From Novacetimonas hansenii JCM 7643 (GTDB lineage Bacteria > Pseudomonadota > Alphaproteobacteria > Acetobacterales > Acetobacteraceae), in the NCBI RefSeq assembly GCF_000964405.1, contig NZ_BANE01000047.1, positions 1 to 35,202 on the forward strand: DNA of 35,202 nt, given 5' to 3'. Within the stretch, counting starts at the first letter, position 1. Each line of letters opens with the position of its first letter. Shown piece after piece: positions 8,526 to 20,688 of the stretch. A program made the translations under genes and the position numbers. Below the pieces are notes generated by a model. That model saw nothing but the letters and a program-made list of their open reading frames with translations. It did not search any database and was not told the origin of the DNA.

Positions 8526-10889
8526 ATGAATACTCCCCCCACCCGTCCTGGTCCCCTCCTCCTCCTCGCCATTGCCCTATGTGCGATATCCGGCCTTTAC
8601 CTGCTGGGTGGTGGCATATGGCTGGCCGTTCTGGGGGGATCTATTTATTATGTCCTTGCCGGGGTGGCATTGCTGGGCACGGCATGGCTGCTGTTCATGC
8701 GGGCACAGGCCGCGCTGGGCCTGTATGCCATCCTGCTTGCGGGTACGATGATATGGGCCGTGCGGGAAGCCGGTTTCGATTTCTGGGCGCTGGCCCCGCG
8801 CGGCGACATTCTGGTGCCGATTGGCATCCTGCTGCTTCTGCCGGGGGTGACGCGGCATCTCAGGGCACCAGTCGGGGCGCCACGCCTTGTGCTTGGGGCG
8901 GTGATTGCCGCGGCGGTCGCGGTTGTCGGCATTGCCCTGACGCAGGACCCGCAGGACATCGCCGGCAGCCTGCCGGCCGTGGCGCAGAATGCCCCGACGC
9001 CCGGCGATGCCAGCCAGATGCCCGACGAAGACTGGCAGGCTTATGGCCGTACGGAGTTCGGGGACCGTTTTTCTCCCCTCAAGCAGATTACGCCTGCGAA
9101 TGTCGGCAAGCTGAAAGTCGCGTGGACATTCCGTACGGGTGACATGCGTGGTCCGGGCGATCCGGGGGAGACGACGGACGAAGTCACGCCGATCAAGATC
9201 CGCGATACGATTTACCTGTGTTCACCGCACCAGATCCTGTTCGCGCTGGATGCCGCCACAGGCAAGCAGCGGTGGAAGTTCGATCCGCAGATCGTCCATA
9301 ACCCAACGTTCCAGCACCTGACCTGCCGTGGCGTTTCCTATCACGAAGCCCCGGCGGATGCGGCGCCTGCCGAATGTGCGCAGCGCATCTTCCTGCCAAC
9401 GAATGATGGCCGCCTGTTCGCCCTTGATGCGCATAGCGGGGCGCGTTGTCACGGGTTCGGCACGGATGGGGAAATCGACCTGAAGGACGGCATGACGGTC
9501 AAGACGGCGGGTTTTTACGAACCCACCTCCCCCCCGGTTGTGACGGACAACATGGTCATCGTATCGGGTGCGGTGACGGACAATTATTCCACGCATGAAC
9601 CCTCTGGCGTCACGCGCGGCTTTGACGTCAATACGGGTGAACTGAAATGGGCGTTCGACCCCGGCAACCCTGACCCCAACGAAATGCCGTCCGAACACCA
9701 CCATTTCGTGCCCAATTCACCGAATTCATGGATCACGTCGTCCTATGACGCGCATCTGGACCTGATCTATATCCCCATGGGTGTCCAGACCCCCGATATC
9801 TGGGGCGGAAACCGCAATGCGGATTCCGAACGCTATGCCAGCTCGATCGTCGCGCTGAACGCATCGACGGGAAAACTGGTATGGAGTTACCAGACCGTCC
9901 ATCATGACCTGTGGGACATGGACATCCCGGCACAGCCCAGCCTGGTGGATATCCGCATGCCCGACGGGCAGGTTGTCCCGACCCTGTATGCCCCGGCGAA
10001 AACCGGCAATATCTTTGTGCTGGACCGCCGTGACGGCAAACTGGTGGTGCCCGCCCCCGAACGCGCCGTCCCGCAGGGCGCGGCGCCAGGGGATCACCTG
10101 TCGGCCACGCAGCCTTTCTCCCAACTGACATTCCGGCCGAAAAAGAACCTGACGGATGCGGACATGTGGGGCGGCACGATGTTCGACCAACTGATCTGCC
10201 GCGTCATGTTCCACCAGCTCCGCTATGATGGGCCATTCACGCCGCCTTCGCTGCAGGGAACACTGGTCTTCCCCGGCAACCTCGGGATGTTTGAATGGGG
10301 CGGACTGGCGGTCGATCCGGTCCGGCAGATCGCGATCGCCAATCCTATCGCCATCCCGTTCGTGTCCACCCTGATCCCGCGCGGCCCCAACAACCCCGCA
10401 ACCCCTGACAAATCCCAGCCATCCGGCAGCGAAAGCGGCGTGCAGCCACAGTTCGGCGCACCTTATGGCGTTGACCTGCATGCATTCCTGTCACCGCTGG
10501 GCCTGCCGTGCAAACAGCCTGCATGGGGATATATGTCCGGCATCGACCTGCGTACGAACAAGATCGTGTGGAAGCATCGCAACGGCACGATCCGTGACAG
10601 CGCACCACTGCCGATCCCCTTCAGGATGGGCGTACCCAGCCTGGGCGGCCCGTTGACCACCGCAGGGGGGGTCGCATTCCTGACCTCCACGCTCGATTAC
10701 TATATCCGGGCATATGACGTCACGACCGGACAGCAGTTGTGGCAGGACCGCCTGCCCGCCGGTGGGCAGTCCACGCCGATGACCTATGCCGTCAATGGAC
10801 GCCAGTTCATCGTGACGGCCGATGGGGGCCACGGCTCCTTCGGGACCAAGATGGGCGATTACGTGGTCGCCTACAGCCTGCCTGAATAA
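8526..10889 (+). CDS. gcd: Membrane-bound PQQ-dependent glucose dehydrogenase
   Basis: Quinoprotein that oxidises D-glucose (possibly other aldoses) to the lactone on the periplasmic face and passes electrons to ubiquinone. The 787-residue product opens with about five membrane segments (residues 10-130), as in E. coli Gcd (796 residues). A periplasmic beta-propeller follows. Close family segments include YGRTEFGDRFSPLKQI, TCRGVSYHEAP, PTSPPVVTDNMV, GVQTPDIWGGNR, YQTVHHDLWDMD, AKTGNIFVLDRRDGKLV, NLGMFEWGG and the C-terminal GGHGSFGTKMGDYVVAY. The high similarity over full length supports glucose dehydrogenase over the quinate/shikimate or glycerol relatives that share the domain plan. A divergent pqq operon is not present here, so PQQ is made elsewhere. 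The start ATG follows AGGAAG. Confidence 0.93.
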   Translation: MNTPPTRPGPLLLLAIALCAISGLYLLGGGIWLAVLGGSIYYVLAGVALLGTAWLLFMRAQAALGLYAILLAGTMIWAVREAGFDFWALAPRGDILVPIGILLLLPGVTRHLRAPVGAPRLVLGAVIAAAVAVVGIALTQDPQDIAGSLPAVAQNAPTPGDASQMPDEDWQAYGRTEFGDRFSPLKQITPANVGKLKVAWTFRTGDMRGPGDPGETTDEVTPIKIRDTIYLCSPHQILFALDAATGKQRWKFDPQIVHNPTFQHLTCRGVSYHEAPADAAPAECAQRIFLPTNDGRLFALDAHSGARCHGFGTDGEIDLKDGMTVKTAGFYEPTSPPVVTDNMVIVSGAVTDNYSTHEPSGVTRGFDVNTGELKWAFDPGNPDPNEMPSEHHHFVPNSPNSWITSSYDAHLDLIYIPMGVQTPDIWGGNRNADSERYASSIVALNASTGKLVWSYQTVHHDLWDMDIPAQPSLVDIRMPDGQVVPTLYAPAKTGNIFVLDRRDGKLVVPAPERAVPQGAAPGDHLSATQPFSQLTFRPKKNLTDADMWGGTMFDQLICRVMFHQLRYDGPFTPPSLQGTLVFPGNLGMFEWGGLAVDPVRQIAIANPIAIPFVSTLIPRGPNNPATPDKSQPSGSESGVQPQFGAPYGVDLHAFLSPLGLPCKQPAWGYMSGIDLRTNKIVWKHRNGTIRDSAPLPIPFRMGVPSLGGPLTTAGGVAFLTSTLDYYIRAYDVTTGQQLWQDRLPAGGQSTPMTYAVNGRQFIVTADGGHGSFGTKMGDYVVAYSLPE

Positions 10890-19420: not shown

Positions 19421-19546
19421 TTTGGTCTCAAAACATAAATATCGCCATGTGCGGGAAACTTCACCTCCCCCGCACGGTTGCAATGGGGTTCGCCTACATA
19501 CCGCCATCAGCCCGGTCGCTGTGGGGGCGGAGCCTGCACTTTCGTG

Positions 19547-19579
19547 TTGCAATTGCGATGCGTTTGCAATATGGATAAT
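19547..19579 (+). promoter_or_regulatory. Candidate promoter for the structured leader at 19585-19690
   Basis: TTGCAA (19547-19552) is followed after 17 bp by TATGGA (19570-19575); an overlapping choice is TTGCGA (19553-19558) with GATAAT (19574-19579) at 15 bp. Either would start transcription a few bases before the hairpins described in the next entry. Confidence 0.35.
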
Positions 19580-19584
19580 GAACT

Positions 19585-19690
19585 CACGGCGTATCAGACA
19601 GTTCCCCAACCGTCGATTTCCCAGCCCTAACGCCGTGAAAACTCTGCGGCATCGTCCACCTTCCTTGGGGCGATGCCGCACCTTTTTTTC
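19585..19690 (+). ncRNA. Candidate structured small RNA or attenuator leader
   Basis: Two hairpins in series. The first pairs CACGGCGT (19585-19592) with ACGCCGTG (19630-19637), 8 bp, with a small inner hairpin GTT-CCCC-AAC. The second is a perfect 10-bp stem TGCGGCATCG (19645-19654) with CGATGCCGCA (19671-19680) followed by CC and seven Ts, a textbook intrinsic terminator. It ends only 21 bp before the start codon of the next gene, so it is either a small RNA of about 100 nt or a premature terminator controlling that gene. It matches no riboswitch class I can recognise by eye. Confidence 0.5.
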
Positions 19691-19710
19691 AGTGCAGGGA
19701 CAAAGCCACC

Positions 19711-20688
19711 ATGCCCGACACCACAGGATGCACACCCGACTGGCACCTAGAGCACTCACGCCCCGCCCTGTTCCTTGATTATTTCAATCCGCGCACATTC
19801 TTTTCCTCCCAGGTCAACAGGCTGGCCACGCGGTTCCGCGATATTCAGGCCTTGTGTGACGAAGGTGAAAATCCGCCGGACCTGACGCGGCTTCGCAATG
19901 AACTTGCCTTTCACCTCATCAAGATGTCCCGCTGGTGGGGTTTTGATTTTTGTCCACGTGGCGTAACGAATGTGCGTAATCCGCTTTTCATGACCTATGT
20001 AAAGACACATATCGAAAATTCGATCGAGGACGAAAGCCTGTTCGACCTTCTGACGGTGCAACGTCATATGCATGCGGGCGATGCGGGCCATATCCTTGTT
20101 CTGGGACATGAAGGCGGCGCCGACCCGACACTGAGTGTACTATTCGGTATAGACGGGCAACGCGGATTCCGCTTTGCCATTGGGTCGAGCGGCCTTGCCC
20201 CCCTGTGGAATGGGCAGACTTATCCCGATTTCGCCAGCGCCTGGCTGGCGGCACGCGCCGTGCATGCGCTGATTGCAGACAGCCACGCCAACGTGCAGGA
20301 ATATGAAATCGCGCATCAGGAACATATCTGGGCGCGTGCATGGCACAGGCGGCATTTTCACCGTCATATCACCCGTCCCGCCATGGACATGTATGTTCAG
20401 GCCAAGGAACAGCTTGGTGCCTGCCAATCGGAATTCGGCAGGCAGGAATTTGAAACGATCGTAAACAAGGCCGCGTTCCACATCACCTGGAGCGCATTTC
20501 ACCGGAACATGACAATCGCGGACATGATCGCGGAAAGCAACATGGGCGAAACAGAACTGCGTCAGGCCAACATCATCAAACGACGTGCCCGGACCTATAT
20601 CACCACATGTGTCGATCCGATCCAGCGCCCGGAAATGGATATCCTGCTTGATCGTGTCATTTCATACCTGCCGCGGCGATGCGCCTGA
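19711..20688 (+). CDS. Unrecognised 325-residue protein
   Basis: A convincing coding region with normal GC-rich codon use and an ATG start preceded by AGGGA about ten bases upstream. I do not recognise a family. The product lacks a signal peptide and membrane segments; it is rich in His, Trp and Arg, with the segments HLIKMSRWWGFDFCPRG, GHEGGADPTLSVLFG and a His/Arg-dense stretch HIWARAWHRRHFHRHI near residues 210-225. The N-terminal third and the last 70 residues look helical. It stands alone between oppositely oriented genes and lies right behind a strong terminator-type hairpin, which suggests its expression is controlled by attenuation or by readthrough. No function is proposed. Confidence 0.7.
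   Translation: MPDTTGCTPDWHLEHSRPALFLDYFNPRTFFSSQVNRLATRFRDIQALCDEGENPPDLTRLRNELAFHLIKMSRWWGFDFCPRGVTNVRNPLFMTYVKTHIENSIEDESLFDLLTVQRHMHAGDAGHILVLGHEGGADPTLSVLFGIDGQRGFRFAIGSSGLAPLWNGQTYPDFASAWLAARAVHALIADSHANVQEYEIAHQEHIWARAWHRRHFHRHITRPAMDMYVQAKEQLGACQSEFGRQEFETIVNKAAFHITWSAFHRNMTIADMIAESNMGETELRQANIIKRRARTYITTCVDPIQRPEMDILLDRVISYLPRRCA

What the first reader, a model, noticed from the sequence alone, without database searches (positions are those of the whole stretch)
19547..19710. Promoter-hairpin-terminator unit directly in front of an unknown gene
A candidate promoter is followed by an 8-bp hairpin, then a perfect 10-bp terminator stem with seven Ts, ending 21 bp before the ATG of the 325-residue gene. 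A strong terminator right before a start codon usually means attenuation by a ligand, protein or antisense RNA, or an independent small RNA. No known riboswitch motif was recognised by eye.
Basis: partly seen in the sequence, partly recalled or inferred. Interest (0 to 1): 0.5.

Follow-up and report, generated by a model that had tools for sequence, protein, structure and literature searches.

The report
Iron-sparing small RNA in acetic-acid bacteria
The hairpins in front of this gene look like a separate regulatory RNA that vinegar and cellulose bacteria probably make when iron is short, to shut down the iron-rich enzyme succinate dehydrogenase; RNAs that work this way are known from other bacteria, but this one is a new family.

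Summary
In detail: promoter, 9-bp hairpin, perfect 10-bp terminator stem, seven Ts, 21 bp, ATG. Attenuation is not the best reading. The unit is one copy of a ~105-nt RNA family: I accept 45 copies in 31 of 397 family genomes, and its stems covary. Nineteen copies lie at a second locus without this gene; 12 of those carry 13-14 of 14 Fur-box bases. The unpaired core GUCGAUUUCCC is exact in 41 of 43 aligned copies. It pairs over 12 bp with the sdhC (succinate dehydrogenase) leader, -20 to -9 from the ATG; this site is in 17 of 37 leaders compared, all Novacetimonas, Komagataeibacter or Gluconacetobacter. In lineages with another core the sdhC leader differs too and still pairs, though two of those four cases are weak. 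Best reading: a RyhB-like, Fur-type iron-sparing sRNA with no Rfam relative, with the 325-residue gene behind an often imperfect terminator. Caveats: no expression data; the window's own operator does not score as a Fur box by itself; only two candidate targets were tested.

The parts
19547..19571 (+). Palindromic operator across the promoter (TTGCAA - 17 nt - TATGGA); at the place where the relatives have Fur-box-like palindromes
   Evidence: Scores 8 of 14 against TGATAATNATTATCA, reached by 27% of shuffles, and the best window is not even at this place; only copy of its pattern in the genome. Operator role by homology to relatives.
19579..19690 (+). Small RNA (about 105 nt; exact ends not known)
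   Evidence: Covariance model hit 19579-19692; fold z -6.39; 45 accepted copies; covariation
19584..19638 (+). Hairpin 1, outer stem 19584-19592/19630-19638
   Evidence: Helix 1 paired in 99.0% of cells, 6 of 8 pairs with changes on both sides
19597..19614 (+). Inner hairpin showing a CCCC loop
   Evidence: Helix 2 paired in 91.7% of cells, but only 1 of 6 pairs changes on both sides
19611..19622 (+). Conserved core CGUCGAUUUCCC, the proposed seed for sdhC
   Evidence: 11-mer exact in 41 of 43 copies; 12-bp match to the sdhC leader
19645..19689 (+). Intrinsic terminator, 10-bp stem, CC, T7
   Evidence: helix 3 paired in 96.3% of cells, 6 of 10 pairs with changes on both sides
19711..20688 (+). 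325-residue protein of unknown function, probably made by read-through
   Evidence: Orthologues or paralogues in 43 of 397 family genomes; no Pfam match over cut-off, none in NCBIfam; poor AF2 model

Best explanation
The unit is a gene for a trans-acting iron-sparing small RNA that works like RyhB, PrrF, NrrF or FsrA. With iron present a Fur-family repressor sits on the palindrome that spans the promoter. When iron falls, a ~105-nt RNA is made and ends at the terminator. Its exposed core (C)GUCGAUUUCCC pairs with the sdhC leader at -20 to -9 from the start codon, which should block translation of the succinate dehydrogenase operon and save iron. Where the terminator is read through, the 325-residue protein is made under the same control. 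Shown by sequence: the RNA family, its covarying stems, the second-locus copies, near-perfect Fur boxes before the Komagataeibacter second copies, the sdhC match and its change together with sdhC in other lineages. Inferred: transcription, iron response, Fur binding, repression of sdhC, read-through.
For: Conserved RNA with covarying stems. Core 98% identical on average, stem 1 77%. Nineteen second-locus copies; 12 in Komagataeibacter with 13-14 of 14 Fur-box bases, 7 in Gluconacetobacter with 11-12. Own genome: 10 places match a canonical Fur box with up to 3 mismatches (2 in the reversed control), three of them before ORFs that I read by eye as Bfd, an MbfA/rubrerythrin-like protein and an iron-uptake binding protein. 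sdhC: the exact 11-mer complement GGGAAATYGAC is in 17 of 37 leaders, namely all 17 examined from the three genera with the common core. In 28 of 31 RNA-sdhC pairs at most 1 of 300 shuffled loops pairs as well; in 27 of 31 none of 26 control start regions does. An exact search in 8 genomes gives 92 places, with the sdhC leader in 8 of 8. Joint change: G372 15 bp and G143 15 bp with wholly different cores.
Against: No transcript or iron response was seen. The window's own operator scores no better than shuffles as a Fur box (8 of 14), as do several class 1 operators; another Fur-family or unrelated regulator could act there. sodB, the other candidate tested, shows no comparable match by eye, though a sodB leader was the best of the 26 controls for 9 of 31 RNAs. 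G012 (73 of 300 shuffles as good), G295 (14 of 300) and G399 class 1 (31 of 300) are weak; the G295 RNA pairs slightly better with the unrelated G019 leader (-20.2) than with its own (-19.8). The G143 RNA pairs even better with G318, G398 and G410, in which no RNA of this kind was found, so that match may reflect a conserved leader. A gapped score does not discriminate. In Komagataeibacter an ORF with a similar N-terminus (MK...LPAD) follows class 2 in 10 of 10 loci, 27-529 nt behind.
Confidence: 0.75

Rival explanations
1. Cis-acting attenuator or riboswitch: the leader senses a ligand or protein and switches the terminator in front of the 325-residue gene.
For: In 26 of 45 accepted copies the RNA stands directly before the orthologue (or, in G149 and G270, before its broken remains), the stop of the T-run being about 20 bp from the ATG here. 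Class 1 T-runs start 2 or more nt behind the GCCG of the stem, or are missing, in 26 of 26 copies, against directly behind it in 16 of 19 class 2 copies (the class 1 stem runs 1-2 nt further), which suggests read-through.
Against: Nineteen copies without the gene; no conserved alternative pairing seen by eye; the RNA remains in G149 and G270 where the gene is in pieces; the core's match and joint change with sdhC.
Confidence: 0.1
2. A trans-acting sRNA as described, but class 1 answers to another signal (for example manganese through a Mur-type regulator, or an unrelated repressor) rather than iron through Fur.
For: Class 1 operators in Novacetimonas and some Gluconacetobacter form a different palindrome (TTGCAA...TTGCAA) and score 6-11 of 14 as Fur boxes; it is the only such site in the own genome. 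A loose alphaproteobacterial Fur sequence TG(C/A)NAN8CA(A/T) is quoted in PMC9409073 (passages); whether it applies here was not tested.
Against: The operators stand at the same place and grade from canonical boxes (Komagataeibacter class 2) through Gluconacetobacter class 2 and G295 (12 of 14) to class 1; sdhC is a typical iron-sparing target.
Confidence: 0.15
3. The stretch codes for a small peptide (for example MDNELTAYQTVPQPSISQP from the ATG at 19572).
For: An open frame through the core is present in the four own-genus copies (read by eye).
Against: The ATG lies in the -10 element, upstream of the expected start; many copies have no ATG there, and copies differ by insertions of 1-2 nt; all three codon positions of the core are conserved.
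Confidence: 0.03

Closest known systems
RyhB, PrrF1/PrrF2, NrrF, FsrA, IsrR: Fur-repressed iron-sparing sRNAs
   Same: Short RNA with intrinsic terminator under a Fur-type operator; C-rich unpaired stretch; match at the leader of the succinate dehydrogenase operon, a shared target of such RNAs (PMC11257911, passages); often two copies, as in PrrF.
   Different: No Rfam match over threshold in the window and none of these families among the weak matches; one class stands before a protein gene behind an imperfect terminator; different host group; iron response and Hfq untested.
RusT of Caulobacter crescentus (PMC11005374: abstract, outline, passages)
   Same: Alphaproteobacterial sRNA linked to iron starvation, 118 nt.
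   Different: RusT is controlled by NtrYX with no Fur site found, and its targets are mainly outer-membrane transporters; sequences were not compared.
Fur-repressed region CC0682-sRNA1-CC0681-sRNA2 / R0117 of Caulobacter (PMC3751524 and PMC6120978, passages)
   Same: Suspected mixture of RNA and small proteins repressed by Fur.
   Different: Only a large (about 1 kb) transcript is reported there; no defined short sRNA or target; sequences were not compared.

Membership tests
Fur-controlled iron-sparing sRNAs (functional class) | Fur box across the promoter | tested here: inconclusive
   Met in 12 Komagataeibacter class 2 copies (13-14 of 14) and nearly in 7 Gluconacetobacter class 2 copies (11-12); 26 class 1 copies 6-11; own copy 8, not above shuffles
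Fur-controlled iron-sparing sRNAs (functional class) | Short structured non-coding RNA ending in an intrinsic terminator | tested here: met
   transcript itself not seen
Fur-controlled iron-sparing sRNAs (functional class) | Conserved core complementary to the start region of an mRNA for an iron enzyme | tested here: met
   sdhC, 12 bp in 26 of 31 RNA-target pairs; sodB without comparable match
Fur-controlled iron-sparing sRNAs (functional class) | Induced by iron shortage, represses the target, usually with Hfq | not testable with these tools
   Needs bench work
RyhB, PrrF, NrrF, FsrA and other Rfam sequence families | Match to the Rfam covariance model | tested here: not met
   0 matches at gathering score in the window; in 19540-19720 only ATPC 20.2, tfoR 15.7 and CcsR1 15.3 bits, all far below their gathering scores; none at the RNA in 10 relatives' loci
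Cis-acting attenuator or riboswitch | Found only in front of the gene(s) it controls | tested here: not met
   19 of 45 copies are elsewhere; 3 of 3 Gluconacetobacter second loci checked have no same-strand ORF of 100 aa within 600 nt, while 10 of 10 Komagataeibacter ones have one at 27-529 nt

The most novel reading that the evidence does not exclude
The first Fur-controlled iron-sparing sRNA with a matched target in Alphaproteobacteria: an invention of acetic acid bacteria, unrelated to RyhB, that began as the leader of a Fur-controlled protein gene, became a mixed sRNA-and-protein unit with a leaky terminator, was duplicated to a stand-alone locus, and has kept pace with the sdhC leader while its seed was replaced in several lineages. 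The 325-residue protein may be its partner, as FbpABC are for FsrA.
Probability: 0.3. Interest if true: 0.8.

Novelty: new member of a known kind. Interest (0 to 1): 0.62.

Why it matters
[quoted passage not shown] A Fur-type sRNA on sdhC in acetic acid bacteria would mean that iron sparing by RNA arose again in this class, would give a natural case of an sRNA and its target changing together, and bears on respiration of strains used for vinegar and cellulose. It is testable with one reporter and two matching mutations.

Tried and rejected
Attenuation by alternative folds: in this copy stem 1 (CGGCGU) could pair with the terminator arm (AUGCCG), but by eye this is not kept in Komagataeibacter class 2 or Gluconacetobacter class 1.

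Loose seed search (GGGYTGGGRRRTYGAY, up to 2 mismatches, 4 genomes): 97-106 places per genome against 26-38 in the reversed control; too loose to use. Exact search (8 genomes): 92 places against 3 in the control; 8 are sdhC, 11 are the RNA itself, 73 others. I fetched 72 of the 73 (the other lies in the window at 9469, inside an ORF). Judged by mechanical ORFs, not annotation, many lie inside ORFs, several by eye in Walker A codons (GKST), which may explain the excess; I saw no other start site that recurs like sdhC, but did not annotate each.

Rows dropped: 8 of the 39 genomes (G063, G180, G222, G223, G228, G233, G257, G315; 27-35 bits) were not accepted; I looked at four (G257, G180, G223, G233: no core) and not at the other four. 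Matches of the RNA's own reverse strand were dropped between (46 to 43 rows). G143 and G399 class 1 are accepted copies but not in the 43-row alignment; G295 and G372 were recognised by eye and are not among the 45. The two weak hits were not read. Of the 40 loci four are other organisms (weak model scores). From the 22 genomes, G075 (no sdhC) and G023 (start not located) fell out.

The 325-residue protein: Pfam X-Tfes_XVIPCD in 9 of 16 members, best E 5.3e-5; in the window's own protein it is below Pfam's cut-off (17.6 of 24.9 bits); PDB sequences nothing below E 0.1; AF2 mean pLDDT 60.5; Foldseek no match at E 0.001. Function left open.

Literature: nine searches of an open-access library listed no paper on such an sRNA in acetic acid bacteria; most subscription papers are not held, and listings were judged by title and start of abstract. 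Seen as passages only: PMC3751524, PMC6120978, PMC11257911, PMC9409073; abstract, outline and passages: PMC11005374; the rest as listings. The Fur consensus TGATAATNATTATCA, the names Bfd, MbfA, Dps and the RyhB-class facts not cited to a paper are recalled.

Full report
What is there. The window is contig C421 of a 3.7-Mb genome. The parts named in the finding are present.

A family of RNAs. The leader is conserved before the orthologue in G001, G002, G003 and G012. A covariance model from these and the window matched 39 of 397 family genomes. I accept 31 (4 of the own genus, 12 of g67, 13 of g85, G012, G143) with 45 copies. Class 1 (26 copies) stands before the orthologue of the 325-residue gene or, in G149 and G270, its broken remains; class 2 (19 copies) lies elsewhere; 14 genomes have both. 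A second model from 43 copies matched 3 of 385 genomes of the class: the own one and two weak ones, not read. G295 and G372 have the same layout before the orthologue with another loop sequence (by eye); the second model gives G372 11.9 bits at that place, E 0.08, and lists nothing for G295.

Structure. Over 43 copies helix 1 is paired in 99.0% of cells with changes on both sides in 6 of 8 pairs, the terminator in 96.3% with 6 of 10, the inner hairpin in 91.7% with 1 of 6 (the alignment was fitted to the model, which favours it). The most conserved part is unpaired or in the inner hairpin: mean identity 98% over ACCGUCGAUUUCCCA against 77% in stem 1; GUCGAUUUCCC is exact in 41 of 43. A fixed core in freely covarying stems is what a trans-acting seed looks like.

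The second locus. In 3 of 3 Gluconacetobacter loci checked the RNA is followed after 15-18 nt by an ORF on the other strand and by no same-strand ORF of 100 aa or more within 600 nt; in G. liquefaciens a Dps-like ORF (by eye) diverges from it. In 10 of 10 Komagataeibacter loci checked a same-strand ORF follows after 27-529 nt; its start looks alike in these (MK...LPAD), and it is not the 325-residue gene. The T-run starts right behind the GCCG of the stem in 16 of 19 class 2 copies and 2 or more nt later, or is missing, in 26 of 26 class 1 copies (the class 1 stem runs 1-2 nt further); a run of 6 or more T is present in 9 of 26 class 1 copies, the window's among them. Read-through into the gene is inferred from this, less strongly for the window's own copy.

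Operator. Against TGATAATNATTATCA (recalled) 12 Komagataeibacter class 2 copies have 13-14 of 14, 7 Gluconacetobacter class 2 copies 11-12, 26 class 1 copies 6-11, G295 12 and G372 11. In the own genome a similar pattern has 10 places against 2 in its reversed control; three lie before ORFs that I read as Bfd, an MbfA/rubrerythrin-like protein and an iron-uptake binding protein. The window's own palindrome scores 8, reached by 27% of shuffles, and is the only one of its pattern in its genome. Fur control of class 2 is well supported, of this copy less so.

Target. Two classical targets were tested in the same 17 genomes. sodB shows no comparable match by eye. The sdhC leader has CAGGGAAATTGACGAGACGACC-ATG in Novacetimonas and Komagataeibacter and CAGGGAAATCGACGAGACGACC-ATG in Gluconacetobacter: 12 contiguous pairs with CGUCGAUUUCCC, one of them G-U in the former. 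Of 31 RNA-sdhC pairs 26 have this helix. In 28 of 31 at most 1 of 300 shuffled loops does as well; in 27 of 31 none of 26 control start regions (22 from the window, 4 sodB) does. Exceptions: G012 73 of 300 shuffles and 2 controls, G295 14 and 1, G399 class 1 31 and 6, G239 1 control. A sodB leader was the best control for 9 of 31. The exact complement GGGAAATYGAC is in 17 of 37 sdhC leaders: all 17 from the three genera with the common core, none of 13 genomes of other genera without an RNA match, none of the g31 genomes, not G012. An exact search of 8 whole genomes gives 92 places; the sdhC leader is among them in 8 of 8.

Joint change. G372: GUAUCCCGUCCGUCU against AGACGGACGGGAUAC, 15 bp, -32.8. 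G143: 15 bp across the start codon, -31. G012: UCCCCCG against CGGGGGA, 7 bp, 12 pairs in all around one bulge. G295: 11 bp ungapped. In the ungapped matrix over 37 leaders the common core scores -21.7 to -23.5 with Novacetimonas, Komagataeibacter and Gluconacetobacter and at best -19.8 elsewhere; G372 -32.8 with G295 and G372, at best -19.1 elsewhere; G012 -17.8 with its own, at best -16.3 elsewhere; G295 -19.8 with its own and G372 but -20.2 with G019; G143 -31.0 with its own but -33.7 with G318, G398 and G410, where no RNA was found. A gapped score does not discriminate. G372 is thus the strongest case; G143 is strong in pairing but ambiguous in history; G012 and G295 are weak alone.

Reading. 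A Fur-type iron-sparing sRNA that works like RyhB but belongs to no Rfam family. Succinate dehydrogenase is a shared target of such RNAs (PMC11257911, passages). In Caulobacter the known iron sRNA is under NtrYX, and no sRNA is said to be known in the Fur regulon (PMC11005374); one RNA of about 1 kb is Fur-affected without a Fur box found, and Fur activates sdh itself (PMC6120978); an earlier paper speculated on Fur-repressed RNAs there (PMC3751524). Within my searches this would be the first such RNA of the class with a matched target. Nothing here shows expression.

Noticed in passing
G000:C449:7916-7934 (L130 around 1501): A near-perfect Fur box (1 mismatch) in the own genome with no obvious iron gene beside it and no match to the RNA model.
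   Followed up: partly
Window 20688 onward; G001:C22, G002:C22 and C88, G003:C13: In the three other same-genus assemblies a contig ends within or shortly behind the 325-residue gene, which suggests a repeat or insertion element there; in the window a Gly/Pro-rich repetitive ORF follows on the other strand.
   Followed up: no
G000:C400:3583-4533 (L008) and relatives L009-L011: A paralogue (about 40% identical) of the 325-residue protein, with a palindrome resembling a Fur box (TTGATGTTAAGAACTGTTATCAA in L008) some 300 bp upstream, by eye.
   Followed up: no
G410 (L068), before the orthologue: A Fur-box-like palindrome (GATAATTGATAACGATTATCATTTGCAATA) directly before the gene and no terminator between, so the gene itself may be the older Fur target (by eye).
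   Followed up: no
L059:3529-3587 and L060:474-532: SECIS_3 (selenocysteine insertion) matches of 51.5 and 37.3 bits, below the gathering score of 63, near the orthologue in two g31 genomes.
   Followed up: no
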